Source: Acinetobacter towneri
GTDB taxonomy: Bacteria; Pseudomonadota; Gammaproteobacteria; Pseudomonadales; Moraxellaceae
Direction of reading: 5' to 3'
Length of the DNA: 44,673 nucleotides
Assembly: GCF_001758345.1 (NCBI RefSeq)
Contig: NZ_MKQS01000001.1
Span: forward strand, 380,406 to 425,078
Shown here in pieces: positions 10,709-34,635 of this stretch. Every line of letters starts with the position of its first letter. Positions within the stretch are counted from its first letter, which is position 1. The position numbers were made by a program, and so were the translations under genes. Below the pieces are notes generated by a model. That model saw only the letters and a list, made by a program, of their open reading frames with translations. It did not search any database and was not told where the DNA came from.

Positions 10709-10825
10709 AGCTAAGGCTTCTTACGTTTTCAGCACCAAAAGGTACTTCAACTTAATTGTAACCATCCTGAATGCCCCTAACCCAAAAGTTAAGTTCATCT
10801 TTGCGATGCTTTATCTCTGAATGAT

Positions 10826-10855
10826 GGTGTACCCATAACTGTGTATAGGTACACC
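10826..10855 (-). other. Stem-loop in the pilJ-chpA gap
   Basis: Perfect 8-bp inverted repeat, GGTGTACC (10826-10833) with GGTACACC (10848-10855), around a 14-nt loop that can add a short inner ATA/TAT pairing. It lies within the 169-bp gap just after pilJ. No T-run follows on the minus strand, so it looks more like an mRNA stabiliser or processing element than a terminator. Confidence 0.5.
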
Positions 10856-10877
10856 TTTCCCCAAGCTGGAATCCCGC

Positions 10878-12953: not shown

Positions 12954-12998
12954 GCAGCTTCTCCCCGATTGACGCCTTCATTTTTAGGTGCGCGACAG

Positions 12999-13535
12999 TT
13001 AATTTATAAATTTTATAGATGCGTTCATGTATTTTGGGTTTTGCAATAAACGACTCAATAAGAAAACATGCCATTGTTGGTTATGTTGGTGAAAATACCC
13101 CTGACAATATTCTTGTAAATTACTATCTAAATCATTGTGTTTAGAAAAGAAACTTTTCTTATTAAAGTGCTGTATACCCAAAACTTGATCTACAACTAAA
13201 CCGACATAATGGTCATTATGACTAATACACATTACCTTTTGAGTAGGTGAATATTGGCTACTTTGCCCAGAAACATAATGTGCCAAATCTGAAACTGAAA
13301 GTAATCTTCCTCGAATATTCGCTAGACCCACTACCCAAGGCTGGGTATTAGGTACTGGCGTGTATTTCGGTGGATAAATCACCTCAGAAACTTCTCCTAA
13401 TGGAGCAACGAAATATTGCCCCATCATTTCAAAAGCAATACCAGACCAGCGGTTTACCTCATTTTCGGTACTTACGTAGTTTTTGTTTCCACGTTTAGAT
13501 AGCCGAAGTAATTCAATAAAACCATTTGCAGCCAT
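12999..13535 (-). CDS. pilI: PilI, CheW-type adaptor
   Basis: 178 residues forming a single CheW domain. Visible features are PLGEVSEVI, the characteristic WVVGLANIRGRLLSVSDLAHYV (around residues 68-89, quoted here only as its hallmark Gly-Leu-Ala-x-x-Arg-Gly), and GLVVDQVLGIQ. The protein couples PilJ to the kinase ChpA. Translation starts 3 bp after the pilH stop, indicating coupling within the operon. Confidence 0.93.
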   Translation of the reverse strand: MAANGFIELLRLSKRGNKNYVSTENEVNRWSGIAFEMMGQYFVAPLGEVSEVIYPPKYTPVPNTQPWVVGLANIRGRLLSVSDLAHYVSGQSSQYSPTQKVMCISHNDHYVGLVVDQVLGIQHFNKKSFFSKHNDLDSNLQEYCQGYFHQHNQQWHVFLLSRLLQNPKYMNASIKFIN

Positions 13536-13538
13536 AAC

Positions 13539-13907
13539 TTATCCTGCATTAAGGTGTTGATTAATCACATCAATTAATTGTTTTTCGTCAACAGGCTTAG
13601 TTAAGTAATCGCTTGCACCTTGGCGTTTTCCCCAAACACGATCGGTGGCCTGATCTTTGGTACTCACAATTACAATTGGAATATGTTTAGTAGTATCACC
13701 ACGCGAAATTTGACGTGTTGCCTGAAAGCCGTTCACGCCTGGCATAACTACATCCATTAATATTAAATCTGGTAATTCAGCTTGGGCCATGGTCACGCCA
13801 TCTGCCCCATTCGTTGCTTCAATGACATCAAACCCACGCTTGGTCAAGATTTCTCTAAAGCGGAATGTTTCTGTAGGTGAATCATCTACAATAAGAATAC
13901 GAGCCAT
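13539..13907 (-). CDS. pilH: PilH, CheY-like response regulator
   Basis: 122 residues comprising one receiver domain and nothing else. Key residues are Asp8/Asp9, phospho-acceptor Asp52 in LILMDVVMPGVNG, and Lys104 in YLTKPVD. The start MARILIVDD at 13907 is preferred over an upstream TTG because GGGGA lies 6 nt before it. In Pseudomonas PilH acts opposite PilG, as a phosphate sink or on PilT-driven retraction. Confidence 0.95.
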   Translation of the reverse strand: MARILIVDDSPTETFRFREILTKRGFDVIEATNGADGVTMAQAELPDLILMDVVMPGVNGFQATRQISRGDTTKHIPIVIVSTKDQATDRVWGKRQGASDYLTKPVDEKQLIDVINQHLNAG

Positions 13908-13943
13908 TATTTTCCCCAATAAATCTATCTAACTAACTAATAA

Positions 13944-14327
13944 TTATGCTGTCACGTGGTTACGAATGGCGTTTAATAATTCATCTTTACTAAATGGTTT
14001 AGTCAGATACTCATCAGAACCCACAACACGTCCTTTGGCTTGATCAAATAAACCATCTTTACTAGATAGCATAATCACAGGAATGTTTTGGTAATTTTGC
14101 GAGTTTTTAATTAAGGCACACGTTTGGTAACCATCTAGGCGCGGCATCATAATATCTACGAACACAATATCAGGATTTGATTCTGCAATTTTGGATAAAG
14201 CTTCAAATCCATCTACTGCGGTAACCACTTCGCAACCTTCTCGTTGTAAGAGCGTTTCGGCTGTACGGCGAATGGTTTTTGAATCATCAATCACCATGAC
14301 TTTTAGATTTTGGAATTTATCGTCCAT
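13944..14327 (-). CDS. pilG: PilG, CheY-like response regulator
   Basis: 127 residues, a single receiver domain with Asp14/Asp15, phospho-acceptor Asp58 (VFVDIMMPRLDG), Ser88 and Lys110 (YLTKPFS). First gene of the pilGHIJ-chpA operon. In Pseudomonas PilG promotes pilus extension and, with FimL/FimV, cAMP synthesis; in Acinetobacter it is needed for twitching and affects natural transformation. Its promoter should lie in the 275-bp divergent gap (14328-14602). Confidence 0.95.
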   Translation of the reverse strand: MDDKFQNLKVMVIDDSKTIRRTAETLLQREGCEVVTAVDGFEALSKIAESNPDIVFVDIMMPRLDGYQTCALIKNSQNYQNIPVIMLSSKDGLFDQAKGRVVGSDEYLTKPFSKDELLNAIRNHVTA

Positions 14328-14460
14328 TCAATGACCCTTCCCATTTTGTTTGTACAAGCAACTGAGTAGAAATTTTTTCACATTGATCGTATTTTTAACA
14401 TATCTTTACTTGTAGTTTCAATGAACATATTTAGCTCGAAGCTACACTTTTACACCATTA

Positions 14461-14488
14461 TCACCAAATCACTCACACTTTCTGGTGA
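14461..14488. repeat. Dyad in the pilG divergent intergenic region
   Basis: TCACCA (14461-14466) and TGGTGA (14483-14488) form a 6-bp inverted repeat with a 16-nt gap. Twelve bases of context further right hold a second small palindrome, CGATA...TATCG (14493-14508). The region between divergent start codons is where control of the chemosensory operon and of the gene at 14603 should sit, so these are candidate operator sites. A 6-bp dyad could also be chance. Confidence 0.3.
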
Positions 14489-14602
14489 CCATCGATATTT
14501 TTTTATCGGTTGTGTTTTTTTAATTTCTAATTTTGATCTAATATAACACTATATATTACGTTTAATTTAAGTAATTTAGTCAACTTTCATTTGGGGGACA
14601 AC

Positions 14603-15247
14603 GTGAGCACTTATTTTGCACAATTACTCGCTGTCAAATTAAAACAAAACAAAAAGTCGTTCAAAATGGCGATGCTAGCGTTGCTTCTGTTTCCCTCTGC
14701 TCAATTGATGGCTGAAACTCAAAATAAAGCAGTATGGTATCGTTATTATGATCAAAAAGGCGTAGCCAATATTAGCAGCAATGTGACCCCCAATCATATC
14801 CGCTATGGCTATGAGGCTTTGGATCGGAACATGCAAGTGATTCAGCGTGCTCGTCCCTATAATACTGAAACCGATATTAAAAAAGCACCACAACGTGCTG
14901 CTCAAGCACGTCAGAGTGAGTCGGACCAGCGTCTAAAAAAAGCCTATACCAACAGTCAAACTGCCACCATTAAGAGAAATAACACTTTAGCGCACATTAA
15001 AAAGCAAATTAGCTTTCAACAAGAACAACTCAAGCAACTCCAAACTGACCGTATTAGTTTTAAACGTCAGGAAATGGAGTATTTACGTAAAGTTAAGCCT
15101 GTACCACCACAACTGAAAACCAATTTAGACAATAACTTAAAAAATATTGAATTAAAAAAAGACATGATTCAATCTTTACAAACAAGCTATCGAAATACCC
15201 AAGCAGAATACGACAGAATTATTCAACGCCTCAAAGCCCTAGAATAG
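14603..15247 (+). CDS. Exported coiled-coil protein with a DUF4124-like N-terminal domain
   Basis: 214 residues from a GTG start. That start is chosen because GGGGGA lies 5 nt upstream; the in-frame TTG at 14591 overlaps the ribosome site. A signal peptide spans about residues 1-38 and ends LMA-ETQ, so the protein is probably periplasmic. After it, VWYRYYDQKGVANIS resembles the DUF4124 strand motif (Tyr/Phe-Tyr-D-x-x-G). The remainder (about 95-214) is Gln/Lys-rich with two long heptad-like helices. Function unknown. It is divergent from pilG and separated from the RND genes by a terminator-like hairpin, so a link to either is unproven. Confidence 0.7.
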   Translation: MSTYFAQLLAVKLKQNKKSFKMAMLALLLFPSAQLMAETQNKAVWYRYYDQKGVANISSNVTPNHIRYGYEALDRNMQVIQRARPYNTETDIKKAPQRAAQARQSESDQRLKKAYTNSQTATIKRNNTLAHIKKQISFQQEQLKQLQTDRISFKRQEMEYLRKVKPVPPQLKTNLDNNLKNIELKKDMIQSLQTSYRNTQAEYDRIIQRLKALE

Positions 15248-15261
15248 GGCTGGCTTTTTTT
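15235..15261 (+). terminator. Terminator overlapping the stop codon of the coiled-coil gene
   Basis: AGCCCTA (15235-15241) and TAGGGCT (15245-15251) form a perfect stem with a GAA loop. GGC and seven Ts follow. The TAG stop codon of the gene (15245-15247) lies inside the 3' arm. An alternative outer pairing, AAAGCC with GGCTTT, could extend it. Confidence 0.7.
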
Positions 15262-15299
15262 GCGTTGTCATTTTGACATTAAAATAAGGACAAATATGC

Positions 15300-16433
15300 A
15301 TGCACATTGCACAGCGTATCTCATTCATTTTTAATCAACAACCTTTGCCACTTCTTCGGATCAGTACACTTGGGTTATGTGTATTTCTTTCTGCCTGCCA
15401 AAAAAATGAAACAGAAAATGTTGCTCCCACACCAGAAAAAATAGAATTAATTCAACAAGATTTAGTGACACCCCAACAAGGCAGTGCCATTAGTAAAACT
15501 GCCTTTACAGGCACAGTACGTGCAGTCAATCAAAGCAGTATTCAAGCACAGGTGACTGCCACAGCAACTTCAGTCTATGTCAAAGTGGGCGATAGCGTAC
15601 AACGTGGTCAAACCTTGCTACGCTTGAATAATCAGGATAATGCTGCACGTTTGGCTCAAGCTCGCGCCAATTTAGCTGCAACGCAAGCACAAGCCAACCA
15701 AGCTCGCAACATGATGCAACGAAAAAAGCGTTTGCTCGATCAGGGTTTTATTTCGCAAGTGGAATATGAGCAAAGTCAGCTAGATTACCGTGCACAAATG
15801 GAAAGTGTACGCGCGCAACAAGCCAATGTTGATATCGCTTTAAAAGCCGATCAAGATGGCACAATTACCAGCCCTATTCATGGCATCATTACAGAACGTC
15901 AAGTTGAGCCTGGGCAAACTGTGGCTGCAGGACAAACCTTATTTGAAATCGTCGATCCGAAGCAATTAGAAATTCAAGCAAAATTACCAAGCGAATTACA
16001 AGCCGCACTCAAAATTGGTCAAAAAATTGAATATCAACTTCAAGGCCAAGCAAACATATTTAATGCACAAATTAGTCGCGTTTCCCCTGTAGCAGATTTA
16101 GCCAGTCGTCAAATTGAGTTTTTTGCGACCCCGCTTGAGCGTCTTCCTTCTTTAAGTATTGGGGCATTTGTGGATGGTCATATTTTAGCGAAAAGCACTA
16201 TTTCAGGGCAAATCATCCCACTCAATACCATTCACGATATCCAAAACAAACCTTATGTTTGGGTGATTCGAGATCAAAAAATTGCCCGCGTGGATATCAC
16301 AGTTTTAGAACAGCGCTATAGTGACAATACTGCTGTGATTCAAGGCTTACAGAGCAGTGATCTAGTCAGTCGAGTGGTGTTCAACCCCGATCAAATTCAG
16401 CAGCAGGTGATCATTCAAAATAACCCTCAATAA
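15300..16433 (+). CDS. RND efflux periplasmic adaptor (membrane fusion protein), lipoprotein
   Basis: 377 residues. The N-terminus is a lipoprotein signal with lipobox LSAC (Cys33), so the protein is tethered to the inner membrane. Then come a beta-barrel/lipoyl region with GDSVQRGQTLLRL (first half-lipoyl), a coiled-coil hairpin (about 110-175: ARANLAATQAQANQAR and the return with QLDYRAQMESVRAQ), the second half-lipoyl with GIITERQVEPGQTVAAGQ, and a barrel domain ending in residues typical of HlyD/AcrA proteins. It delivers the link between the permease encoded 63 bp downstream and an outer-membrane TolC-like channel, which is not encoded here. Substrate unknown. Confidence 0.9.
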   Translation: MHIAQRISFIFNQQPLPLLRISTLGLCVFLSACQKNETENVAPTPEKIELIQQDLVTPQQGSAISKTAFTGTVRAVNQSSIQAQVTATATSVYVKVGDSVQRGQTLLRLNNQDNAARLAQARANLAATQAQANQARNMMQRKKRLLDQGFISQVEYEQSQLDYRAQMESVRAQQANVDIALKADQDGTITSPIHGIITERQVEPGQTVAAGQTLFEIVDPKQLEIQAKLPSELQAALKIGQKIEYQLQGQANIFNAQISRVSPVADLASRQIEFFATPLERLPSLSIGAFVDGHILAKSTISGQIIPLNTIHDIQNKPYVWVIRDQKIARVDITVLEQRYSDNTAVIQGLQSSDLVSRVVFNPDQIQQQVIIQNNPQ

Positions 16434-16496
16434 ATTGAATTTCATCTCAATGCAGTAGTGCAGATGTCCAATAAATAAAAAATCAGGATCGTTGTT

Positions 16497-19400
16497 ATGT
16501 GGTTTACCCGAGTTAGCGTCAAGTATCCCGTTTTTACCATCATGATGATGTTTTGTCTAATGGTGCTTGGCTTGGCTTCATGGCAACGTATGGGCGTGGA
16601 AGAATTTCCTGACGTCGATTTTCCGTTTGTAGTGGTTTATACCAGTTATCCGGGTGCATCACCTGAAACAGTTGAATCTGAAATCACCAAGAAAATGGAA
16701 GATCAGATCAACACCATTTCTGGACTCAAACAACTGGTTTCACAATCCAGTGAAGGGTTATCTACCATTATAGCCGAATTTAATTTAGATGTTCCTTCGG
16801 CAGTGGCAGCACAAGATGTACGCGATAAAATTTCGTCTGTCAGTGCAGGCTTTCGAGATGAAATTCAAGACCCTGTGGTGGAGCGCTACGACCCCACTGC
16901 TAATGCGGTTCTGTCGATTGTCTTTGAATCCTCACAAATGTCCTTGCGGGATTTAAGTTCCTATTTAGATCAACAGGTTGTGCCACAACTGCGCACTGTG
17001 TCTGGCGTCGGAACTGTCAATTTATTGGGGGATGCACAGCGACAAATTCGAATTGAGGTCGATCCACAAAAATTAATGAGTTTGGGCTTAGGTGTGGATC
17101 AGGTGATCAATACCCTCAAAGCTGAAAATATTGAAGTGCCAGGCGGTACACTCAAACAAGCCAATAGTGAATTGGTGGTCGAAATTCAATCCAAAGTCAT
17201 TCACCCTCTGGCTTTTGGCGATTTAATTATTGCCAATAAAAATGGTGCGCCAATCTTTTTAAAACAAGTGGCTACAATTCAAGACAGTCAGGCAGAGCTG
17301 GAAACTAGTGCGTTTCTAAATGGGCAAACTGCGGTTGCTGTCGATATCTTGCGTAGCTCAGACTCTAATATCATTGAAGTGGTAGATAACACCTACAAAA
17401 CCTTGGAACGTATTCAAACCCAACTGCCTGCAGGCATGACTGCAAAAGTCGTGGCGGATTCTTCTAAAGGGATTCGTGGCAGTATCCGTGATGTAGCACG
17501 CACCATTATTGAGGGTGCGATTCTAGCCGTCCTGATTGTACTATTGTTTCTCGGTTCATTCCGTTCTACCGCCATTACAGGATTGACCCTGCCCATCGCC
17601 CTACTCGGTACACTCACCTTTATTTGGTCATTTGGCTTTACCATCAACATGATGACCTTACTGGCGCTCTCGCTCAGTATTGGCTTATTGATTGATGATG
17701 CAATTGTGGTTCGTGAAAATATCGTGCGTCATGCCGCTATGGGCAAAGACCATGTCACTGCTGCTTTGGATGGCACTAAAGAAATTGGCTTGGCGGTTTT
17801 AGCCACCACGCTAACCATTATTGCGGTATTTTTACCTGTAGCATTTATGGGCGGGATTATCGGACGTTTTTTCTATCAATTTGGTGTAACCGTCAGTACT
17901 GCAGTACTGATTTCCATGTTTGTCAGTTTTACCCTAGACCCAATGCTGTCTGCACATTGGGCAGAAAAACCCAATCCCAATAAACAACCTGGACGGGTAA
18001 AACGTTTCTTAAACTGGATTTCCAACAAACTCGACAATTTAAGTCATCATTATGAAAAACTTTTAAAATTAGCGCTACGATTTCGCGTTATTACCTTATT
18101 GATTGCCGTAGCTTCATTATTTGCCGCACTCGGATTATCTAAACTTATTGGTACAGAATTTGTACCTGTACCCGACAAAGGTGAAATTCGGATTAAATTT
18201 GAAACACCTGTGGATGCCTCACTTGAATATTCACAAGCAAAATTAAAACAAGTAGATCAAATCATTCGTCAACACCCTGAAGTTCGTGCAACTTACGCAG
18301 CCATTAACAGCGTGACAGATCGCGGGAAAAATCATGTTAATTTACGTGTAACTGTCAGCCCACGTAATGAACGTGAACAAACATTGACAGAACTCAATAA
18401 CGAATTCCGCCAACGTCTACAAAGCATTGCAGGTATCACCATCACCTCTGTCGCATCTGCCGATGAAACAGTTTCGGGAGGACAAAAACCTGTGATGGTG
18501 TCCATTAAAGGCCCTAATTTAGCAGAGTTACAAAAAATTTCTGACCACTTTATGAAAGAAATTGCTCAGGTGGATGGTATTGTCGATTTAGAAAGCTCGC
18601 TAAAAGCCCCTAAACCTACATTAGGTGTTCATATAAATCGCGTCCTTGCTAGCGATTTGGGGCTATCGGTGAATCAAATTGCCAATATTATCCGCCCACT
18701 CATTGCAGGGGATGATGTCACTACATGGCAAGATGAACATGGCGAAACCTACGATGTTAATGTTCGCGTTACGGAAAACCGTCGTAGCTTGCCGAGCGAT
18801 GTGCAAAATATGTATTTAACTTCACAAAAAACCGATGCCAATGGACAAAATGTTTTAGTGCCTTTAACGAGTGTGGCAAAGTTTGAGGAAAGTTTAGGTG
18901 CAGCACAAATCAACCGCCGTGATTTAGCCCGTGAAGTTTTGGTCGAAGCAAACACCGCAGGACGTCCTGCAGGTGACATTGGTGCCGACATACAAAAAAT
19001 TCAGGATAATTTTAAGCTCCCTGCGGGCTATAGTTTTGACACCCAAGGTTCCAATGCCGATATGGCCGAATCTGCGGGTTATGCACTCACAGCAATTACA
19101 CTCTCCATCGTATTTATTTATATTGTTTTAGGCTCGCAATTTAACAGCTTTATTCACCCCGCAGCAATTATGGCTTCTTTGCCGTTGTCGCTGATTGGTG
19201 TGTTCTTGGCGCTGTTTATTTTTAATTCCACCATGAACCTATTTTCTATTATTGGCATTATTATGCTGATGGGACTGGTGACCAAAAATGCGATTCTACT
19301 GATTGATTTTATAAAGAAAGCCATGGATCAAGGTGAGTCACGTTATGACGCTATTATTGCCGCAGGTAAAACCAGACTACGCCCTATTTTAATGACCACT

Positions 19401-19724: not shown

Positions 19725-21440
19725 ATGCGCGCGAGTCGCTTTTTATTTGCTACGTTAAGAGAAACCCCAAACGATGCCGAGGTGATTTCTCACCAGCTAA
19801 TGTTACGTGCGGGTATGATTCGTAAATTGGCTTCGGGTTTATATACTTGGCTGCCAATGGGTGTGCGTGTGCTAAATAAAGTTGAAGCCATTGTTCGTGA
19901 AGAAATGAACCGCGCAGGTGCTTTAGAAACATTTATGCCTGTCACGCAACCTGCTTCACTTTGGGAAGAATCAGGGCGTTATGTGCAATATGGTCCTGAG
20001 TTACTGCGCTTTAAAGACCGCCACGACAATCCTTTTGTACTTGGTCCAACACATGAAGAAGTCATTACTGATTTGGCACGTAATGAATTAAAAAGCTATA
20101 AGCAATTGCCAATCAACTTCTATCAAATTCAAACTAAATTCCGTGACGAAATTCGACCACGTTTTGGGGTAATGCGTTCACGTGAGTTTATTATGAAAGA
20201 TGCTTATTCTTTCCATACCAATCAAGCCTCCCTACAAGAAACCTATGATGTCATGTACGACACATACTGCAGAATTTTCTCACGCTTAGGTTTAGACTTC
20301 CGCCCAGTACAAGCAGATACAGGTTCTATTGGTGGTTCTGGTTCACATGAATTCCACGTTCTGGCTTCAAGTGGTGAAGATGATATTGCCTTCTCTACAG
20401 AATCTGATTATGCAGCCAATATTGAAATGGCTGAAGCCATTTTGGTGGGTGAACGTGCTGCTGCAACGCAAGAACTCAACATTGTAGAGACACCAAACCA
20501 AAAAACCATTGCGGAAGTTTCTGCATTTTTAGGCACAAATAGCAACCAGTCAGTCAAAGCGCTCTTGGTTCAAGGTGTTGCAGATGAATCAGGGCAAATA
20601 CCTGTGATTGCATTATTCCTGCGTGGTGATCATGAACTCAACGAAATTAAAGCAGAAAAGCATCCACAAATTGCTGCACCACTTACTTTTGCAACCGATG
20701 CACAAATTGCAGCGTTAGGTTTAACTGCTGGCTTTGTTGGTCCACAAGGTTTGGTCGAAAAAGGCATAACTGTGATTGTAGACCGTGCTGCATCGGTATT
20801 GTCTGACTTCGTTGCAGGTGCAAACCAAGTTGATCAACACGCAACAGGTGTAAACTGGGAGCGCGATGCACAATATACTGAAGTTTATGATTTACGTAAT
20901 GTCGTTGAGGGCGATCCATCTCCCGATGGGAAAGGAACTCTGCAAATTAAACGCGGTATTGAAGTCGGTCATATCTTCCAGCTTGGTACTAAATACTCAG
21001 AAGCGTTGGGCTGTAAAGTATTAGGTGAAGATGGCAAACCGTTTACTGTTACCATGGGATGCTATGGGATTGGTGTTACCCGTGTGGTTGCCTCTGCCAT
21101 TGAACAGAACTTTGATGATAAAGGGATTATTTGGCCTGCAGCCATCGCACCATTTGAAATTGCGATTGTGCCAATGAACGCACATAAATCACCACGTACA
21201 TTAGAAGCAGCAGAAGCACTTTATGCTGAACTTCAAGCTGCAGGTTATGATGTATTACTGGATGATCGTAATGAACGTCCTGGGGTGAAATTCTCTGATC
21301 TTGAGCTTACAGGTATTCCGCACCGTATTGTGATTGGTGAGAAAGGTTTAGATGCAGGTACTTTTGAATATAAAGGTCGTCGTGATGCTGAATCTAGCAA
21401 CCTAACGAAAGAAGAATTACTCATCAAAATTGCTAACTAA
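19725..21440 (+). CDS. proS: Prolyl-tRNA synthetase, bacterial type with editing domain
   Basis: 571 residues, the normal length of the bacterial form. It charges tRNA-Pro with proline in the cytoplasm. Class II motifs are visible: motif 1 around RELK-free segment 46-75 ([18 protein letters not shown]), [11 protein letters not shown] at 108-117, motif 2 [17 protein letters not shown] at 139-155, and motif 3 [14 protein letters not shown] near 445. The inserted editing (YbaK-like) domain that clears Ala-tRNA-Pro lies at about 225-405. The anticodon-binding domain is at the C-terminus. TATAAT at 19669-19674 could be its -10 box, but no good -35 box accompanies it. Confidence 0.97.
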
Positions 21441-21498: not shown

Positions 21499-22923
21499 TT
21501 AACAGAATTTCATACCACCATAACAGTTAGGGGTAACGTTTTGGTTATTTAAAAGCTTATCCTTTAATGTAATCGTAGCTGGATTTCCTGTTGCATAATT
21601 CGTAAATTGACCTACATTAATATTCAATTTTTTTTCAACAGCTACGCCAGCCAAAGAACCTAAAGCCTCAAAAGCACCAACATCAATTGGTTCGGATTTA
21701 TTGAGCAAATAGTCACTAATCGCTGTAGCTACTTGTGGTAATACCGCAGAAATATCAACCTTATCTGTTGTTGCTAAATATCCCAGTTGTATAGGTTCTT
21801 TAAAAGACATCCACCACCCTTGTTGAGCAACATCACCCTGATCGGCTCCTTGCCAATGCACAGGTTTACTTTGCAGAGATAAATACCCTCCTGTGCCATT
21901 GAGTGGAATATTGTGAATCATATTCAAAGCTTGAACAAAAGTAATATCCATATTAAGTTCATCCAAACTCGAGCCTGCTGCCATTTTAAAGAATGAGTGT
22001 GTCCCAAGAGAACCAAATAATAAAGCAGGGAATTCTACATAAAGCTGGTCTTGAGAGAAATCAGGAGTTCCTTGAACACTACCCGGTAAACTCTTACCCA
22101 GCTCTGCAACAGCTAAAGGAATAGAAGGAATAGATGAGCGAATACCACTCACTTTGGCAGCAGTCATACGTTGACCCGTAACCACCGTTTCTGGCATAGT
22201 AAAATCTACTTTCATAGAAGGAACTGTAATCCCTGTATGCCCTTCTGTTCTAACACCATTTGTAAATGGCTTACTATCAAACTGTCTTGTTTGCCCCAAA
22301 GCCTTTAAACGACCAGAAATAATTTCATCATCGGTCATACCAAATGTCGCTTGCTCAGTAAATGAATGACCTTGAGTTTGTGCCATTTTCATATAACCAC
22401 TAAAACTTTTAATCCCGTCATTTGGGTTTTGTACGTTATCTGTACCCAAAGTCAGTAGACCTAAAATTTCTTCAGCACCTAAACGAAAACCAATCACTTC
22501 ACGTGTTGACGCACTATTTCCACTAATTGCAAACTCAATAAATGGATTGGTAATTTGTGCGCTTGTGCCTGCACGCTCACTTGTAAATTTGGGACTGCCT
22601 GTCGAATCATAAGATTGGTTCAAACCACTTAATGCAATATTAGAAATATCAATATCACATCCTGCTTTACCACCAATCGCATTATTTACACCGCCACAAC
22701 CTAGTTGTAGTGTTTTAATATTGGCATTGAGCTCCATGAGTGCATCAACACTCAGTTTATAAAAATTTAACCCTTGCGATTGATCTGTCGCAGTCATCAG
22801 GTTCAAAAGTGCCTGACCTTGTACATGAGATAACTGATCATCATTTAAAGCCTGCATCGCTTGAGCAGAATTGAATGAAAAAGCTGTACTTAAAATAGAT
22901 GCAACTAAAATTGTTTTTTTCAT
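21499..22923 (-). CDS. Exported protein with LS-x3-GQ signature, fourth gene of the secreted-protein operon
   Basis: 474 residues. Sec signal peptide MKKTILVASILSTAFSFNSA with cleavage after AQA (about residue 22), followed at once by MQALNDDQLSHVQGQA, the signature shared with the three genes upstream. The mature part looks like a beta-rich secreted protein with many Asn, Gly, Ser and Thr residues. It has exactly four cysteines in two pairs: Cys-x12-Cys near residues 75-89 and CYGGMKFC at the extreme C-terminus, so the last residue is Cys. No catalytic motif is seen. The start follows the previous gene by 14 bp. Resembles DUF6160/Fil-like proteins annotated in Acinetobacter as putative pilus or surface proteins; function unproven. 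Confidence 0.72.
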   Translation of the reverse strand: MKKTILVASILSTAFSFNSAQAMQALNDDQLSHVQGQALLNLMTATDQSQGLNFYKLSVDALMELNANIKTLQLGCGGVNNAIGGKAGCDIDISNIALSGLNQSYDSTGSPKFTSERAGTSAQITNPFIEFAISGNSASTREVIGFRLGAEEILGLLTLGTDNVQNPNDGIKSFSGYMKMAQTQGHSFTEQATFGMTDDEIISGRLKALGQTRQFDSKPFTNGVRTEGHTGITVPSMKVDFTMPETVVTGQRMTAAKVSGIRSSIPSIPLAVAELGKSLPGSVQGTPDFSQDQLYVEFPALLFGSLGTHSFFKMAAGSSLDELNMDITFVQALNMIHNIPLNGTGGYLSLQSKPVHWQGADQGDVAQQGWWMSFKEPIQLGYLATTDKVDISAVLPQVATAISDYLLNKSEPIDVGAFEALGSLAGVAVEKKLNINVGQFTNYATGNPATITLKDKLLNNQNVTPNCYGGMKFC

Positions 22924-22937
22924 TTTATTTCTATCCT

Positions 22938-25184
22938 TTAGCGTGGCGTAATGCCCAATGTGCTGCGCATGGTTCCACCTGTAAGCGCGACAGATGCGAT
23001 TTTCTGCATATTGCCATTGGTAGACATTGCAAAGTTTGTTTTAAAGGGTTGAGCAATATCATTTTTATAATTAAATTTAACTTGATTGTCTAAAGTGACC
23101 GTATCTGCACTGACGACGACTTTTCCTTTAACACCTATATGACCTTCCATTCGATTCAAGTTAATAGAAGACGTTTGAACAGTTTCATTATTCACTTGAT
23201 CTTCATTAATCAAACTAAAATAACTACCTAAATTCTTGGGATCTGCCTGTTCTGAGCTATCTAGACTTCTAAACTTAAAGTTCGCATCAAAAGACAAAAA
23301 GTTTGAGTTCGGATTAGTATCGGTTGGATCCATTCCAGGAATCACCAACAACTCACCATTTCCATCTAATTTAAAAGCGATTGTGGTCAACACATCATCT
23401 TTCTTAGAGAAATTATCATAAGGTATAAAGCTACCGCATTTAGTTGATCCTGTGACGCAGTTGTACTTTGAACCCGGTAGTTGTCCAATCGCTAACTCTG
23501 CTTTTGCTGCAATCAATAAATGATCTGCACGTATATAAACCCCTTCATCTTCATAACCAATCACACCATCGGACTGAATTAATGCATCAATATTTCTTAA
23601 ACCAGCATAATAGTTGACAGCTTCACCAGCATGCAGGCTGTCTTGCCCGTCAATTAAGATAATAGAAGTGGTACTTGGTAAGCCTGTTTTTGAATCAATG
23701 CCATAACCTTCGGTAGAAACAATAGCGTTATAACCAATTCCGGTTTTGTTCGTTCCATCATAAGGTGACAGATATTGTTTACCCGACAAGGCCACATTGG
23801 CATTTAAATTATAAATTGGAATCCCAATACCCCAAGAACCACCATCTCCTGTCAATTCATTTAAAGAGTTGTCAGAAATAATTCTAGCTTTGGCTGCAAT
23901 AGACTGAAAGTCCACACCACGAACAGCGATCAGTGAGAACTGGTCACCTTCAAGCTTACTCGATAGCAACTGGTTTAAAATAGGACTGGTTGCACCAATG
24001 GTATTTTTAATATTTTCATTGACTAAAAAATTGAGGTTTTTCGCTTGTACGGTATTAATATAAATATCGCCAAAATCGATAGAGGCATTTTTATTGTGTA
24101 AATTACCTTGTGCATCACGTGTGGTTAGCGGTCTTAAATTCGAAAATTCAACCGCATAACTGCCTTTTCCTGTGTGCCCAATTTCTAAAGTTGTTGGTAA
24201 TTGCCCTGCAGCCAAGCCTGCCGTATTTTGATTGGTAAAATCAGCAGATAAGCCCAAATGCAAACCACCTTGTCCCACCACAGTATCGTAGCCTGTAACT
24301 GCGGTATTTTTTGTTTCAATTACACCATTGACCTTATTCGAAACGTCAAAATTGGCAACATTTTTTTGCTGCCCATTAAAAAACAATTTCGCATTGCTCA
24401 CCGCACCTGATGCACCAAAGCGAATTAAATTTTTATCATCATAACGCAAGTCAATATTGACCCCAGGATTGGTTGCATTTTGTCGGCTACTAGCAACATC
24501 ACTCAGGTCTTTCACTCTTCCAAGATTCACAAAATGGTCGGTGGTGCCATTTTTAGTGGTAAAGACCAATCCCTCATCGGCATCAATGTACATATAGCCG
24601 TCAGTCGCAAAATTAAAGTTAAAATCATGCATAGATAATTGATGATCACCTAAACCATGACTAATTTTGGCATTCTGTAACTGGAAGTTTAAATGTGCCG
24701 TTTCATTTTGATTGAATAAACCTGCTTTGGTTTCTAATAAAACTTTTAAAGGTGATTTAGTTTCTAAGCCGAACTGACCCAAGCTTTGTGTTTCTTTAGT
24801 ACAACTATTTCCGACACAGTTTTTTTTGACCAAGTTTAAATCTGCGGTCGCTTGAAAAGCATCAATGCTCGCATCGATACGCACACCTGCGCCGACATCA
24901 GTTTTCCCCACATCTAAAGCAAGCTTACTGATAATAGGCTGGTTATTCTGTCCTTTAATTTCTACATTATGTAAGCCTAAACCCTGTTGAGTTCCAGCCA
25001 CTAAATCAGGATCATACCAATTGACTTGATTAATCGTGGCTTTAGACATTTCATGGGTGATTACAATACCATCTTGCCCGCTTACATCAGACAAATGCTG
25101 GTCTGCAATCAGCTCTAAAGCATAGACTTGTTGCGCACAAAGTACGCTCAATGTTAATAAATTCAACTGTATTATTTTTTTCAT
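22938..25184 (-). CDS. Large exported protein with LS-x3-GQ signature, third gene of the operon
   Basis: 748 residues. Signal peptide MKKIIQLNLLTLSVLCAQQVYA, then LELIADQHLSDVSGQDGI, the best match to the shared signature and to the DUF6160-type N-terminus. The rest is rich in Asn, Asp, Gly and alternating hydrophobic residues, with phrases such as DGYMYIDADEGLVF and SDGVIGYEDEGVYIRADHLLIAA that read as repeated beta strands, probably a long beta-helix or beta-sandwich array. Mature cysteines are two close pairs, CVGNSC and CVTGSTKC. Spaced 33 bp from the gene before and 14 bp from the gene after. Likely an outer-surface or secreted protein; no enzymatic motif seen. Confidence 0.75.
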   Translation of the reverse strand: MKKIIQLNLLTLSVLCAQQVYALELIADQHLSDVSGQDGIVITHEMSKATINQVNWYDPDLVAGTQQGLGLHNVEIKGQNNQPIISKLALDVGKTDVGAGVRIDASIDAFQATADLNLVKKNCVGNSCTKETQSLGQFGLETKSPLKVLLETKAGLFNQNETAHLNFQLQNAKISHGLGDHQLSMHDFNFNFATDGYMYIDADEGLVFTTKNGTTDHFVNLGRVKDLSDVASSRQNATNPGVNIDLRYDDKNLIRFGASGAVSNAKLFFNGQQKNVANFDVSNKVNGVIETKNTAVTGYDTVVGQGGLHLGLSADFTNQNTAGLAAGQLPTTLEIGHTGKGSYAVEFSNLRPLTTRDAQGNLHNKNASIDFGDIYINTVQAKNLNFLVNENIKNTIGATSPILNQLLSSKLEGDQFSLIAVRGVDFQSIAAKARIISDNSLNELTGDGGSWGIGIPIYNLNANVALSGKQYLSPYDGTNKTGIGYNAIVSTEGYGIDSKTGLPSTTSIILIDGQDSLHAGEAVNYYAGLRNIDALIQSDGVIGYEDEGVYIRADHLLIAAKAELAIGQLPGSKYNCVTGSTKCGSFIPYDNFSKKDDVLTTIAFKLDGNGELLVIPGMDPTDTNPNSNFLSFDANFKFRSLDSSEQADPKNLGSYFSLINEDQVNNETVQTSSINLNRMEGHIGVKGKVVVSADTVTLDNQVKFNYKNDIAQPFKTNFAMSTNGNMQKIASVALTGGTMRSTLGITPR

Positions 25185-25217
25185 TTTTATTTCCCTATAC
25201 TGTACTTAATCCTATAT

Positions 25218-25934
25218 TCAACAACGACTTGCTGCTGAACCTGTACAGTTGTAGCTAAATATTTTCACATTGCCAGACATGTGCATATTGCCGTGAATAT
25301 TTAAGCCCATAAATCCTTTTTCAGCGCCCTGATCGAACAAAGGTACATCTTGCTGAACTAAGTTATAACTACCATCTTGTTGATAATTTCTTCCTAGAAA
25401 ATTGGTATATACCTCTGAATTTGCATAACCTTCATTTACTCCCTGCCCAGAACCTGTTTCAATAGATAATGCAGCGAAGCCTAAATTTCTAATTTTTAAC
25501 GGCTTATCATCATAAAACTTAAGCTGCATGGCGGTTTGTGGGTCATTTTTATGATTAATAATGGTTGTGCCATCTAAAGAAAATTTATCTATTTGTATAG
25601 TGCCCTGAATTTGTTTAAATACCAGCCATTTTTTATTGCCGTTATTATCTTCATGGTTATTGGGTGCAATGGCTAAACGACAGAGCACATTATTGTCAGC
25701 ACAATTTTTACTATAGCGATAATAAACTTCTGTAGGTTTAGTCCCACCATTAAATTTAGAAATATTGCTGAGTTCTAAGTTTTCGGTATATTCATGGTTC
25801 AACGATAACGTCCAACTGAGGTCTGCTCCACCTTGACCTGTAGCCTGCGTTAATTCATGATTTTCCAGTGCAATTAAATTGGCATGGGTCAAAGGACTAC
25901 ACATCAATGCAATACAAGACATTTTTTTCAACAT
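25218..25934 (-). CDS. Small exported protein with LS-x3-GQ-like signature, second gene of the operon
   Basis: 238 residues. Short signal peptide MLKKMSCIALMCSPLTHA, then NLIALENHELTQATGQGGADL, where Leu-Thr replaces Leu-Ser in the shared signature. GGAG sits 7 nt before the ATG and only a few bases after the stop of the previous gene, so translation is probably coupled. Mature cysteines are two pairs: CADNNVLC and CTGSAASRC, the latter ending the protein, again with Cys as the final residue. The body predicts beta strands (FKQIQGTIQIDKFSLDG; PLKIRNLGFAALSIETG). Smallest of the four; could be a minor subunit or chaperone-like partner. Function unknown. Confidence 0.7.
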   Translation of the reverse strand: MLKKMSCIALMCSPLTHANLIALENHELTQATGQGGADLSWTLSLNHEYTENLELSNISKFNGGTKPTEVYYRYSKNCADNNVLCRLAIAPNNHEDNNGNKKWLVFKQIQGTIQIDKFSLDGTTIINHKNDPQTAMQLKFYDDKPLKIRNLGFAALSIETGSGQGVNEGYANSEVYTNFLGRNYQQDGSYNLVQQDVPLFDQGAEKGFMGLNIHGNMHMSGNVKIFSYNCTGSAASRC

Positions 25935-25947
25935 GATGATTCTCCTT

Positions 25948-27969
25948 TTATAGACCTGTTGTTTTGAATTTAAGGTGCTGAATCAGCACACCATCTATTG
26001 CAACTGAACCTAGATTCTTAGCAGTACCATCTACACCTTTAAATACAACACCTGTGGCATTATCATGATCCTTGGCACGCAACATATTATTTGGCAAGCG
26101 TTCTACAGTACCAATTGCAATACTACTATGTGTCGCATTACGTCCTTGATACATCGCAGCACTGTCATTGGCATTGGCTTTTAGCGGTGTGCCACAGCTC
26201 ACCACATTACAGGTAGAACCTGTAAATGCTGTAGAACCTAAATATCCACCCTTTCCATCTTCATAATTTTGATAAATTTTATTGTAAATTTCAGGAACAT
26301 TCGGAATACGTGTTACTTCCAGCACAATATTATTGCCCTCAGAACCAACCACAAAAGGCTGATAGATATTCCCTAAAACTAAATTGATATTTGGGCTGTA
26401 TAAATACAAACCTTCTATATCATGAAAAACTGGTGCTAATGAACCATCTATTGCTGGTGTGGCCGCAGTTCCATCTAAAGTGTCTGATTTTGATGCTGTA
26501 CTAATGCGAATTCCTTTACTGTCTAAGTTTGAGTCTGTAAAACTTAAAATCGCAGGATTATCATTGGTATTTAAACGCAATACACTTGCCATACCCAATG
26601 TTTGATGATGATTTGGGTTATCCGAGTCTAAAGTCTGAAATACTCGGGTCTGTGAACCATTTAAACTTAAACCATTGGCAACAAACTGAGTACGTAAACG
26701 GTGCTCTTTATCTAAACCCGATTTTGGTGCTCCAGTGCTCGGATCAACCTCTGCGCTTGAATTCAACTGACGCGAAAAAATATCAGTCCAAAAGCCCAAT
26801 TTAATATTATTATCACTTTCAGTTGGCGTTGTAGTTGCGAGCGGTGCCTCAAGTGCCAAATAACCGACATCTTTTTCTACATTTTTAAATTGTTTTACTT
26901 TTTCTGTACCAGCACGGAATAACCATGGATTGTCTGCAGAACCCCAGTTAAAACCCTGATTGCTATAACGGCTACTTAATGAGTTATCACTTTTAGATAA
27001 TGCTAAACCATAAATAAAGATATCTGCTTTAGTTCTGAGTGAACCTACTGAAGTTTGTGCTGCTGCTGTTTTTGCTGCTTGAGTTGCGGTATTTACTGCT
27101 AACAATTCCAATTCTTTGATTGCATTTGTAGCTGCTGCTTTTGCAATTTTATCCCCTTCATAGTCCAGCCGCTCTTGAGTTACTGTTTCTACAGTTTGAG
27201 CAACCTTAGGATCAATATGATTAAATCTTGTAACCCCTTGCGTCCACTGTGTTGAAGGTACGGTATCAGCACTTCTATTACCATATAAAATTTCAATCAT
27301 TTCATAAGTATTATTAGTCGCATACTCTATTGCCTTTTTTTCTAAGTTCGGATCCCAAGCATGTAGGGAATATGATGTTGTACCATCTTCTATTAAGTCA
27401 GAACCAATAAATCCCCAAGTACCATCATGATAATCATTATAACGCTGTTGATAATATTGTTTCATTCGATCAGATTCAAAGTATTCTGCCACTGAACTTT
27501 GACGCACACCAACTGAGATTTCACTGCTCACTGCTGTTTTTGTAGAGCTATAATTTTGTGTTTTATAGTTATTGAAAGTCGTCGTATAGGTACTTTGGTA
27601 TAATGTTGATGTAGTTGAAACACCTGCCAAATATTCAGCATCATAAACCTGATTATAAACTTTCTTATAGGTATGTTCTGAAATATTCTGATAATTCTCC
27701 CCCGTCGGAATAATACGAATAAAGCCCGTATCATATTGACTAGGGTTTTCTAACCCACGTGTATAGCTCGACCCTGTTGATAGATCATTCGGTTGCTGAA
27801 ACACCATTTTGAAATCATCAAGAACTAAAGCAACCCCTTCGCCTGTGGTATTTGACAAAGAGTCATCGGAGAGTGCTTGCAAGGCATAACTTGGGTTCGC
27901 CAAAAAAAAGCCTATCGCAGTGGCTAAGCAATGCTTACGAAAAGGGAAAGTAATTGCGTGTTCAGTCAT
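25948..27969 (-). CDS. Exported Tyr/Thr/Ser-rich protein with LS-x3-GE signature, first gene of the operon
   Basis: 673 residues from the ATG at 27969, chosen because AAGGA lies 8 nt upstream; an ATG at 27978 abuts the ribosome site. Signal peptide with RKHCLATAIGFFLANPSYA, then LQALSDDSLSNTTGEGVAL, the shared signature with Glu in place of Gln. A Tyr/Ser/Thr-rich stretch follows (about 70-170), then an Ala/Glu/Thr-rich helical segment (about 260-310, AAATNAIKELELLAVNTATQAAK), then beta-rich sequence to the end. The only mature cysteines form one pair, CNVVSC. First gene of the four-gene unit, so its promoter should lie between 27970 and 28157. Function unknown; likely a surface structure component. 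Confidence 0.72.
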   Translation of the reverse strand: MTEHAITFPFRKHCLATAIGFFLANPSYALQALSDDSLSNTTGEGVALVLDDFKMVFQQPNDLSTGSSYTRGLENPSQYDTGFIRIIPTGENYQNISEHTYKKVYNQVYDAEYLAGVSTTSTLYQSTYTTTFNNYKTQNYSSTKTAVSSEISVGVRQSSVAEYFESDRMKQYYQQRYNDYHDGTWGFIGSDLIEDGTTSYSLHAWDPNLEKKAIEYATNNTYEMIEILYGNRSADTVPSTQWTQGVTRFNHIDPKVAQTVETVTQERLDYEGDKIAKAAATNAIKELELLAVNTATQAAKTAAAQTSVGSLRTKADIFIYGLALSKSDNSLSSRYSNQGFNWGSADNPWLFRAGTEKVKQFKNVEKDVGYLALEAPLATTTPTESDNNIKLGFWTDIFSRQLNSSAEVDPSTGAPKSGLDKEHRLRTQFVANGLSLNGSQTRVFQTLDSDNPNHHQTLGMASVLRLNTNDNPAILSFTDSNLDSKGIRISTASKSDTLDGTAATPAIDGSLAPVFHDIEGLYLYSPNINLVLGNIYQPFVVGSEGNNIVLEVTRIPNVPEIYNKIYQNYEDGKGGYLGSTAFTGSTCNVVSCGTPLKANANDSAAMYQGRNATHSSIAIGTVERLPNNMLRAKDHDNATGVVFKGVDGTAKNLGSVAIDGVLIQHLKFKTTGL

Positions 27970-28152
27970 CTCGACCATCCTTTTATCTGATGCTCCGCAT
28001 CTTTCTTTTATTTATCTATAGCTTGGCTATTTATTTGAGTGTTTTTATCCTTAAAAACGTGATTATGCCAAACCATTCTCATATTTAATTATGCTGAATA
28101 TTTATGCAAATGCAAAACAAACTGGCTAAACAGCACAGCTTTCCGATGAATG

Positions 28153-33486: not shown

Positions 33487-33520
33487 AAAACTCCCTATAG
33501 ATAATATAGGGAGTTTTTTT
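33487..33520 (+). terminator. Terminator after metG, overlapping the end of the convergent PIN gene
   Basis: Stem of 13 bp: AAAACTCCCTATA (33487-33499) with TATAGGGAGTTTT (33505-33517), 5-nt loop, then more Ts. The T-tract reaches into the stop codon of the convergent gene (33520-33522). The A-run on the left gives a weaker T-tract for the minus strand. Confidence 0.85.
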
Positions 33521-34635
33521 TAATTTTTCTCAGCATACAACTCTCTATTGAATGGAGGATCCATATTAGTAGAGTCATAAAGTTCATAAGTGTTTATCAG
33601 CTCATTGTCTAAATTATATTCTTTAATAAGATAAGTATCTGTATCTAATCTATGTTTTTGTTTCCAAGACTTATGATCACAAGTTATTCTATGCTCTTTT
33701 GGAATATTTAAATACTTCCTATATTCTAACCAATCATCATAAACTTTTAACTCACTTGATAACTGATTTTCTGTTGCTGCTACAGAATCAATTACCGCAC
33801 TACTCGCATTAAAAATCTGTAATAACTTCGATAATGAGAGAATATGAAATGATTTACCATTTGTTTCTCGCCTAAACTCATCAACTAATTCAAATCTTGG
33901 ATAAAGCCCCTCTTTATTAGATTGATGCCACCAGTCGCTCTTTTCATCTGCAGAAATAAATATTAAATGTTTATCTTTTTCTTGAGCACACTTTAAGATT
34001 TCTTTCCAAATTATCAAATCACCTGAAGCATTTAAATCCTTTCCTTTATCTTTGAAACCTGGTGGTAGTGATAAGGTATTTCTTTTTTCTAACTCACTCT
34101 CTAGTTGGGTAAAATCGATATGTGAGTCATCCAAAATACGATCGACAAATAACTCTTTATATACTGTGCTTACTGGATCATTCCACGTCCAATTTTGCAT
34201 AGTAGATATTATGCTTCTAATTTTATCTTGATATTCTTTTATCTGAACTTTTAATGCTGATCCCAATCCAATTAGCTGTTCATATTCGTCTAAATTAGTT
34301 AAAACAGGATAATTTTCTACATACTGAAAGCTCGTAGAAGATTTTTTATTTAAAGCTTCAACGATTTCAGAAAGCTTATTTGGTCTGTTTTTTAAGAACT
34401 CTCTAATCGCATGGGAAGGTATATACAATTGATTAGTGCTTATCAGTTGACTGTAGACTTGCTTGATCGCATTGAAACTTTCTGAATTTGTTTTATATGG
34501 TAAAAGTAAAATATTTGTATCCAACACAATAAGCGCTTCATTTTTTATCTCATCAATTTTCTTAAACTCAAAGAAAAATGCATCTCTTGACTGAGGGTAA
34601 ATATCTTTTAATGTATAGAAGTTATTAGAAGCCAT
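33520..34635 (-). CDS. PIN-like domain protein (PIN_8 type), putative ribonuclease
   Basis: 371 residues, no signal peptide. A PIN-type metal site can be read: Asp39 in IVLDTNILLLPY, Glu79 in HAIREFLKN, Asp206 in SGDLIIWKEIL, and Asp230 in IFISADEKSDWW. The phrase PPGFKDKGK just before the third acid is typical of the large PIN_8 group. PIN nucleases cut RNA; large stand-alone members are often found in accessory and defence-rich loci rather than as VapBC-type toxins, and no antitoxin gene is adjacent. The C-terminal 100 residues are charged and unassigned. The gene is AT-rich and sits between metG and a hydrolase with unrelated roles, consistent with acquisition by transfer. Nuclease activity and role are inferred. 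Confidence 0.75.
   Translation of the reverse strand: MASNNFYTLKDIYPQSRDAFFFEFKKIDEIKNEALIVLDTNILLLPYKTNSESFNAIKQVYSQLISTNQLYIPSHAIREFLKNRPNKLSEIVEALNKKSSTSFQYVENYPVLTNLDEYEQLIGLGSALKVQIKEYQDKIRSIISTMQNWTWNDPVSTVYKELFVDRILDDSHIDFTQLESELEKRNTLSLPPGFKDKGKDLNASGDLIIWKEILKCAQEKDKHLIFISADEKSDWWHQSNKEGLYPRFELVDEFRRETNGKSFHILSLSKLLQIFNASSAVIDSVAATENQLSSELKVYDDWLEYRKYLNIPKEHRITCDHKSWKQKHRLDTDTYLIKEYNLDNELINTYELYDSTNMDPPFNRELYAEKN

What the first reader, a model, noticed from the sequence alone, without database searches (positions are those of the whole stretch)
21499..27969. Four-gene operon of secreted proteins sharing one short signature right after the signal peptide
All four products have a Sec-type leader and then the same pattern within about 15 residues of the cleavage site: LQALSDDSLSNTTGEG, LIALENHELTQATGQG, LELIADQHLSDVSGQD and MQALNDDQLSHVQGQA. 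Consensus: hydrophobic-x-D/N/H-x-x-Leu-Ser/Thr-x3-Gly-Gln/Glu. The rest of the proteins differ in size (238 to 748 residues) and composition, so the shared tag looks like a sorting or assembly signal, not simple common ancestry. Its placement and the Leu-x4-Gly-x form recall double-glycine leader ends, but here it lies on the exported side. Similar N-termini occur in Acinetobacter proteins annotated DUF6160 or Fil, whose role is not settled.
Basis: partly seen in the sequence, partly recalled or inferred. Interest (0 to 1): 0.78.

Follow-up and report, generated by a model that had tools for sequence, protein, structure and literature searches.

The report
Periplasmic leader tag for Fil secretion
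Four exported Acinetobacter proteins share a short N-terminal tag that looks like a second, removable leader read by a periplasmic peptidase, which suggests an address label used by many otherwise unrelated proteins and offers a testable answer to what this kind of peptidase cuts.

Summary
A tag profile built without this genome and three near orthologues ranks exactly these four proteins first among 398 window ORFs (E 1e-8 to 2e-5; next 2.1). The tag starts at the predicted signal-peptidase site and follows the register of leaders cut by C39 peptidases: hydrophobic -12, Leu -7, Val/Thr/Ala -4, Gly -2. Position -1 is Gln/Glu, where canonical leaders have Gly/Ala/Ser. The genome has a fil operon on another contig: tagged FilA, FilB (C39 peptidase related to FapD), FilC (related to channel FapF). 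All 127 sampled Acinetobacter genomes with full FilB carry the window operon's 474-aa family; 28 of 31 without it lack that family. In an order-wide sample, 28 of 28 FilB genomes have tag hits, against 2 of 206 others. Tags occur on about 23 body clusters without detectable similarity, and 113 of 135 listed tags lie away from filB. Neighbours of FapD-type peptidases carry an analogous leader, mostly ending GG, GR or GK. Best reading: after Sec export FilB recognises and probably removes the tag, committing the protein to export through FilC. Recognition is well supported by genomics; cleavage and route are inferred. Three genomes keep tagged operon genes without FilB.

The parts
25948..27978 (-). 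first gene of the operon, 676-aa tagged exported protein (W676; 673 aa if it starts at 27969)
   Evidence: relatives with tag in A. baumannii L005 and in L218, L219, L220
27838..27882 (-). tag of W676: LQALSDDSLSNTTGE, predicted cut after GE
25218..25934 (-). 238-aa tagged exported protein (W238)
   Evidence: relatives in L005, L217, L218, L219
25833..25880 (-). tag of W238: NLIALENHELTQATGQ (the one of the four with Glu at -8)
22938..25184 (-). 748-aa tagged exported protein (W748), DUF6160 N-terminus
   Evidence: 34.7 bits, cut-off 27
25074..25118 (-). tag of W748: LELIADQHLSDVSGQ
21499..22923 (-). last gene, 474-aa tagged exported protein (W474)
   Evidence: family found in 130 of 158 Acinetobacter genomes
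22813..22857 (-). tag of W474: MQALNDDQLSHVQGQ
19725..21440 (+). flank: 571-aa gene, proS by recalled identity; adjoins the dcd gene directly in two Acinetobacter genomes that lack FilB
   Evidence: L228, L229
28214..28783 (-). flank: 189-aa gene, dCTP deaminase (dcd); marks the empty site in two FilB-less genomes

Best explanation
The tag is a second leader placed just behind the Sec signal peptide. After signal peptidase cuts, the new N-terminus exposes about 15 residues whose short helix (hydrophobic -12, Leu -7, Val/Thr/Ala -4) docks on FilB, the C39 cysteine peptidase of the unlinked fil operon, expected in the periplasm. FilB cuts after Gly-Gln/Glu, and this commits the protein to export through FilC, a FapF-like outer-membrane channel, to the surface or matrix. 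The four window proteins would be trans-acting clients of the Fil machine, alongside FilA and a small 131-135-aa protein encoded elsewhere in the genome. Shown by computation: tag, register, FilB/FilC kinship, co-occurrence, empty site. Inferred: periplasmic place of FilB, recognition, cleavage site, export through FilC, surface role.
For: Register: of 150 distinct tags, Met/Leu at -12 in 145, Leu at -7 in 134, Thr/Val/Ala at -4 in 132, Gln 143 and Glu 7 at -1 (the search pattern fixed Gly at -2, allowed only Q/E at -1 and limited -12, -11, -10, -7 and -6, so -4, -15 and the DG after the tag are the free observations). Published C39 leaders are L(-12)xxxE(-8)L(-7)xxxxG(-2)G(-1); V-4, L-7 and L-12 sit in a groove of LahT, and V-4T is fully cut (PMC6363468, PMC6959990, passages). 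Machine: FilB matches Peptidase_C39 (7e-16) and NCBIfam FapD (4.7e-31); FilC matches FapF (1.5e-17) and PDB FapF (7e-12). FilB Cys72, His157, Asp173 and Gln66 are invariant in 14 homologues. Co-occurrence: genus 127 both, 0 FilB only, 3 W474 family only, 28 neither; order 28 of 28 FilB genomes with tag hits and 2 of 206 others; class 6 of 6 against 0 of 363 after reading ORFs; family 31 both, 3 tag only, 1 FilB only, 26 neither. Empty site: two Acinetobacter genomes without FilB have the dcd and proS genes next to each other. Linkage: a tagged gene upstream of filB on the same strand in 80 of 80 loci kept from the FilB scan. Trans use: 113 of 135 listed tag hits in 26 genomes lie over 20 kb from filB or on another contig. 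Modularity: 45 tagged proteins from 21 loci fall into 24 body clusters, one probably a false tag. Parallel branch: near FapD-type peptidases 33 of 67 exported-like neighbour ORFs (22 of 23 loci) show an analogous leader, near FilB 105 of 364 (100 of 115 loci), background 11 of 379. FilA model: helix 27-34 on the tag, strands from 39.
Against: Position -1 is Gln/Glu, not Gly/Ala/Ser, and canonical C39 clefts are described as very narrow there, so cleavage may fail or lie elsewhere. Three near-complete Acinetobacter genomes without FilB keep tagged operon genes (G661 three, G722 four, G742 five tag hits). G482 has a FilB-like peptidase (186 bits) and no tag hit. The FilB N-terminal hydrophobic segment lacks positive charges, so its topology rests on FapD. 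Nothing links the four proteins to FilC beyond FilB. The tag helix in the FilA model has low pLDDT (block means 52 and 65). Genomes are related, so the Fisher values overstate independence. The background used ORFs of 150 aa or more on either strand, the neighbours 80 aa or more on the peptidase's strand, so the two are not perfectly matched.
Confidence: 0.66

Rival explanations
1. Docking without cutting: FilB (or another Fil protein) binds the tag as a chaperone or gate signal, as in C39-like domains that have lost activity, and the tag stays on the mature protein.
For: Position -1 is Gln/Glu, unusual for C39 cleavage. Sequence data cannot tell binding from cutting.
Against: The catalytic residues of FilB are invariant in 14 homologues. 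In Fap the catalytic Cys of FapD was needed for secretion (PMC5557850, passages). The tag ends where the beta-rich domain of the FilA model begins.
Confidence: 0.17
2. Common ancestry only: the tag is the conserved N-terminus of one very divergent family (DUF6160 and relatives) with no sorting role.
For: DUF6160 covers the N-terminus of several members beyond the tag; W748 and a few FilA-type proteins share weak similarity over about 55 to 97 residues. Short bodies give phmmer little power, so some clusters may be distant relatives.
Against: About 23 body clusters, whole proteins of 75 to 886 aa, carry it without detectable similarity between clusters. It tracks FilB in genus, order and class samples. 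113 of 135 listed tag hits lie away from filB. A parallel leader with another -1 residue goes with FapD-type peptidases.
Confidence: 0.1
3. The tag addresses proteins to another co-inherited Fil component (FadL-like FilD, FilE or lipoprotein-like FilF) or to a different outer-membrane route, and FilB only acts afterwards.
For: FilC and FilD homologues lie behind filB in G269 and in Pseudomonas aeruginosa PA7 (read by eye from the ORFs, not scored), so co-occurrence cannot tell them apart there.
Against: In G197, which has tag hits in plenty, filB and filC are present but no FilD match was printed in the 8 kb after filC (FilD elsewhere in that genome was not sought; in G310 and G069 the contig ends near filC, so they say nothing). 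The register fits C39 peptidases specifically.
Confidence: 0.07

Closest known systems
Double-glycine leaders of C39 peptidase-containing ABC transporters (ComA, LahT, PCAT1)
   Same: Same register: hydrophobic -12, Leu -7, Val/Thr at -4, Gly -2; catalytic Cys/His/Asp peptidase; one peptidase serving unrelated cargos.
   Different: The protein is Sec-exported first; the peptidase is a stand-alone, expected periplasmic protein; -1 is Gln/Glu; cargos are large proteins; no ABC transporter seen in the fil operon.
Fap functional amyloid system of Pseudomonas (FapD, FapE, FapF)
   Same: Stand-alone C39 peptidase next to a related outer-membrane channel; FapE homologues carry a leader in the same register behind the signal peptide (GR/GK type).
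   Different: FilB forms its own clade (100/99 support); Fil scores are far below NCBIfam cut-offs for FapD and FapF; the Fil tag is on many unlinked proteins; amyloid repeats were not looked for.
Acinetobacter fil operon (NCBIfam pilus_FilA to FilF, 'putative pilus system')
   Same: FilA carries the same tag; the operon is in this genome above the NCBIfam cut-offs.
   Different: The window operon is a separate locus; two of its four products match the FilA model, and only at the N-terminus. Nothing here supports a pilus.
Pfam DUF6160 (PF19657)
   Same: The model covers signal peptide plus tag of three of the four.
   Different: Only one of the four passes the cut-off; the model mixes tag and body.

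Membership tests
canonical double-glycine (C39) leader | hydrophobic -12 and Leu -7 | tested here: met
   all four window tags; 150 tags (positions partly limited by the search pattern); consensus from PMC6363468 and PMC6959990 passages
canonical double-glycine (C39) leader | Glu at -8 | tested here: not met
   Glu in W238 only of the four; 17 of 150 tags. LahT tolerates changes there
canonical double-glycine (C39) leader | Gly-Gly, Gly-Ala or Gly-Ser at -2/-1 | tested here: not met
   Gly at -2, but Gln/Glu at -1 in all four; around FilB, Gln in 98 of 105 leaders found without a rule on -1
canonical double-glycine (C39) leader | cut by a C39 peptidase | not testable with these tools
   needs N-terminal sequencing or an in vitro assay
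Fap system | FapD peptidase (NCBIfam NF058616, cut-off 330 bits) | tested here: not met
   FilB 107.8 bits, E 4.7e-31: related, below cut-off; separate clade
Fap system | FapF channel (NCBIfam NF058560, cut-off 700 bits) | tested here: not met
   FilC 63.5 bits, E 1.5e-17: related, below cut-off; closest PDB sequence is FapF, E 7e-12
Fap system | amyloid subunits FapB/FapC | not tested
   no search made for amyloid repeats
fil operon FilA | NCBIfam NF050077, cut-off 220 bits | tested here: not met
   W748 34.1 bits and W676 13.5 bits, N-terminal only; W474 and W238 no FilA match. The unlinked FilA of this genome passes with 294.4
DUF6160 | PF19657, gathering score 27 bits | tested here: inconclusive
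   W748 34.7 (passes), W474 26.3, W238 19.3, W676 none
known fold for the tagged body | confident structural match of the FilA model | tested here: inconclusive
   Foldseek no match with E <= 0.001; best VIA Z 6.8, rmsd 6.6, 159 aligned, to an outer-membrane channel

The most novel reading that the evidence does not exclude
A general two-leader export route: Sec-exported proteins carry a second, peptidase-read leader that addresses them to FapF-family outer-membrane channels. The last leader residue would match the peptidase clade (Gln for FilB, Gly or Arg/Lys for the two FapD subclades), and Fap amyloid secretion would be one specialised branch of a wider protein-sorting system with many unlinked clients per genome.
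Probability: 0.5. Interest if true: 0.85.

Novelty: new variant of a known kind. Interest (0 to 1): 0.72.

Why it matters
Rouse et al. [quoted passage not shown] A tag that follows C39 leader rules and tracks the peptidase clade makes that question directly testable. It would also give a predicted mature N-terminus and a likely route for a large set of proteins of unknown function in Acinetobacter, Pseudomonas and relatives, including the pellicle-associated fil operon. I did not find this tag-peptidase link in the listings of the library searches; only open-licence papers are held there.

Tried and rejected
Ordinary full-length paralogues: rejected, the four bodies show no match below E 0.27. 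DUF6160 as the answer: the Pfam model mixes tag and body and misses W676. A tag private to Acinetobacter: rejected. Raw class tag hits: 13 of 369 genomes at E <= 0.01; I dropped seven after reading their ORFs (G331, G424, G421 transporter-like by eye; G082, G088, G136 match essentially in the signal peptide; G355 match far inside an ORF). Tag hits of the order sample were not read one by one. In some searches the first look scored at most 18 and 31 candidates per genome, so tag-negative genomes may hold weak tags. A weak hit in this genome, C27, E 0.54, reads as a non-exported protein by eye. Conservation in the FilA alignment (T34, G35, Q36, G38 and G317 invariant in 63 rows) is only partly evidence, because the rows were picked by a pattern that demands the GQ. 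Single-sequence AlphaFold of W238 failed (mean pLDDT 29.3). Fold search of the FilA model gave no confident fold. The peptidase tree came with a long-branch warning. A tree labelled by an automatic best leader per locus was noisy: 7 changes against a least of 3, shuffled mean 19.1, 13 of 58 loci without a pick. The statement that the two FapD subclades differ as G against R/K rests on my reading of the list against the tree: a neighbour ending R/K in 11 of 11 loci of one subclade, and one ending G in 11 of 13 of the other (L108 gave no leader; L131 was missed by the C39 pattern, and its neighbour ends GQ). In the G subclade second neighbours of some loci end in D, M, I, T, R or A. Neighbours may be plain orthologues inherited with FapD, so this clade match is weaker proof than the FilB case. 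G028 keeps its operon genes on another contig than dcd, so the dcd-proS site is not universal. The paper search for A1S_0742 to A1S_0747 gave a biofilm transcriptome list (PMC3758355, passages), but I could not establish that these loci are the window operon and do not use them.
Full report
Observation. The window holds four consecutive minus-strand genes of 676, 238, 748 and 474 codons with short gaps. Each product has a hydrophobic leader ending in a plausible signal-peptidase site, followed at once by the tag. A profile of 33 tags, from which all rows of this genome and three Acinetobacter orthologue rows were removed, ranks these four first of 398 window ORFs, E 1.3e-8 to 1.8e-5, with the next ORF at 2.1 and the best reversed ORF at 0.53. 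The bodies beyond the tag have no pairwise BLASTP match below E 0.27. Only one of the four passes the Pfam DUF6160 cut-off.

The machine. The same genome (2.95 Mb, 67 contigs; its FilB is 98% identical to that of A. towneri DSM 14962) has a complete fil operon on another contig, L004. FilA carries the tag. FilB is a C39 peptidase (Pfam E 7e-16; NCBIfam FilB 547 bits; NCBIfam FapD E 4.7e-31, below its cut-off). FilC matches NCBIfam FapF at E 1.5e-17, below its cut-off, and solved FapF at E 7e-12; FilD is FadL-like. The FilB profile's best PDB sequence is a double-glycine motif protease (6mpz, E 2.6e-8, over profile positions 108-190). The catalytic residues are invariant in 14 FilB homologues. 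FapD was shown by others to act in the periplasm and to need its Cys for FapC secretion, and its target was called unclear (PMC5557850, passages). A 2025 review says FapD is thought to process the FapE N-terminus (PMC12822426, passage).

Register. Papers on LahT and PCAT1 give the leader consensus L(-12)xxxE(-8)L(-7)xxxxG(-2)G(-1), a short helix from about -11 to -4, and pockets for -12, -7 and -4; a V-4T change was fully processed (PMC6363468 and PMC6959990, passages). The four tags read LSDDSLSNTTGE, LENHELTQATGQ, IADQHLSDVSGQ and LNDDQLSHVQGQ from -12 to -1. They have Leu/Ile at -12, Leu at -7, Thr/Ala/Val/Val at -4, Gly at -2 and Glu/Gln at -1. Over 150 distinct tags the profile is the same, though the search pattern itself fixed or limited several positions. 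Glu at -8 and a small residue at -1 are not met, so I do not file the tag as a canonical double-glycine leader; it works like one, by inference.

Co-occurrence. Moraxellaceae sample: tag in 34 of 61 genomes, FilB in 32, both in 31; tag without FilB in G037, G038 and G041 (fragmented drafts), FilB with an internal stop and no tag in G053; two further genomes (G036, G056) have only weak C39 hits and no tag. Order sample, 234 genomes: 28 have FilB at 300 bits or more (one, G647, with an internal stop), and all 28 have tag hits; two others have tag hits, G443 (FilB-like, 183 bits) and G429 (75% complete). G482 (FilB-like, 186 bits, 89% complete) and 11 genomes with only FapD-like peptidases have none. 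These hits were not read one by one. Class sample, 369 genomes: 13 raw tag hits at E <= 0.01, six accepted after reading the ORFs; the same six are the only ones with FilB above 200 bits, while 39 further genomes with weaker, FapD-like matches have no accepted tag. Genus sample, 158 genomes: full FilB and the W474 family 127, FilB alone 0, W474 family alone 3, neither 28 (two of the last hold only a FilB fragment or a distant C39). The three exceptions have three, four and five tag hits, and eight other genomes without full FilB that were searched have none. In two FilB-less genomes the operon site is empty, dcd next to proS. Relatedness of genomes makes the Fisher values only indicative.

Clients in trans and modularity. 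In all 80 a tagged gene lies upstream of filB on the same strand, within about 3 kb (78 by pattern, L188 and L192 by reading). Beyond that, 113 of 135 listed tag hits in 26 genomes lie more than 20 kb from filB or on another contig (rows of G000, G005, G429 and G443 and unlisted rows were left out; contig breaks can hide linkage). Forty-five tagged proteins from 21 loci fall into 24 body clusters by phmmer, one of them probably a false tag; the six tagged proteins of this genome are six clusters. In G269 tagged genes of 458 and 238 aa (the latter ending Gly-Tyr) sit directly before filB, filC and filD. G197 and G310 gave 11 and 12 tag hits; the seven and five that I read are small exported proteins, some in pairs or triples, not beside filB.

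The FapD side. Around FapD-type peptidases 33 of 67 exported-like same-strand neighbour ORFs, in 22 of 23 loci, have the analogous leader; -1 is R 13, G 12, K 2, M 2 and four others. Around FilB it is 105 of 364 ORFs in 100 of 115 loci, with Gln at -1 in 98. Background: 11 of 379 exported-like ORFs over 3.5 kb from the peptidase, chosen with slightly different length and strand rules. Of ten neighbours tested, four, all of the R/K kind, match NCBIfam FapE at E 1e-20 to 7e-33, below its cut-off; the G-type ones match no related family. FilB and FapD rows are two clean sides of the peptidase tree, 100/99, with a long-branch warning. Inside FapD one subclade has a neighbour ending R/K in 11 of 11 loci and the other one ending G in 11 of 13 (read by me). 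Rouse et al. stated that Fap proteins lack canonical C39 sequences; the leaders of these FapE homologues suggest at least a related signal.

Structure. AlphaFold of A. towneri FilA with 63 rows gives mean pLDDT 78 and pTM 0.68, a helix at 27-34 over the tag (low-confidence region, block means 52 and 65) and a beta-rich body from residue 39; no confident fold match.

Role. The fil operon (A1S_0690-0695) is described as highly produced in pellicle cells, and filA transcription rises 2.7-fold with mucin (PMC5376624 and PMC5757984, passages). A surface or matrix role of the four proteins is therefore my guess, not a result.

Verdict. A real, modular tag; recognition by FilB is likely, cleavage and FilC export are plausible. 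Main doubts: -1 Gln/Glu, FilB topology and the three genomes without FilB.

Noticed in passing
L108-L130 (FapD-type loci), list: Exported neighbours of FapD-type peptidases, including FapE homologues, carry a leader in the C39 register right behind the signal peptide; GG in one peptidase subclade, GR/GK in the other.
   Followed up: partly
L221, L222, L075-L102 (G197, G310): Two related gammaproteobacterial genomes gave 11 and 12 tag hits; those read are small exported proteins away from filB-filC, some in pairs or triples; function unknown.
   Followed up: partly
G661, G722, G742: Three near-complete Acinetobacter genomes keep three to five tagged operon genes although FilB is not found.
   Followed up: partly
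L219 (G039), 12428-17192: Three tandem W474-type paralogues, all tagged, beside the other operon genes.
   Followed up: no
L012 1258-1665: This genome has a sixth tagged exported protein of 131-135 aa on contig C5 whose body forms its own cluster.
   Followed up: no
L191 3752-9252 (P. aeruginosa PA7): Two large ORFs with LuxR-type C-termini (by eye) lie directly upstream of the filA-filB-filC homologues, possible regulators.
   Followed up: no
window 6149-14327: A CheA-like kinase with Hpt, CheW and receiver domains (1519 aa) with same-strand genes beside it; looks like the type IV pilus chemotaxis cluster (identity of the others recalled, not tested).
   Followed up: no
window 33520-34635: 371-aa protein with a PIN_8 domain (E 3.7e-39).
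   Followed up: no
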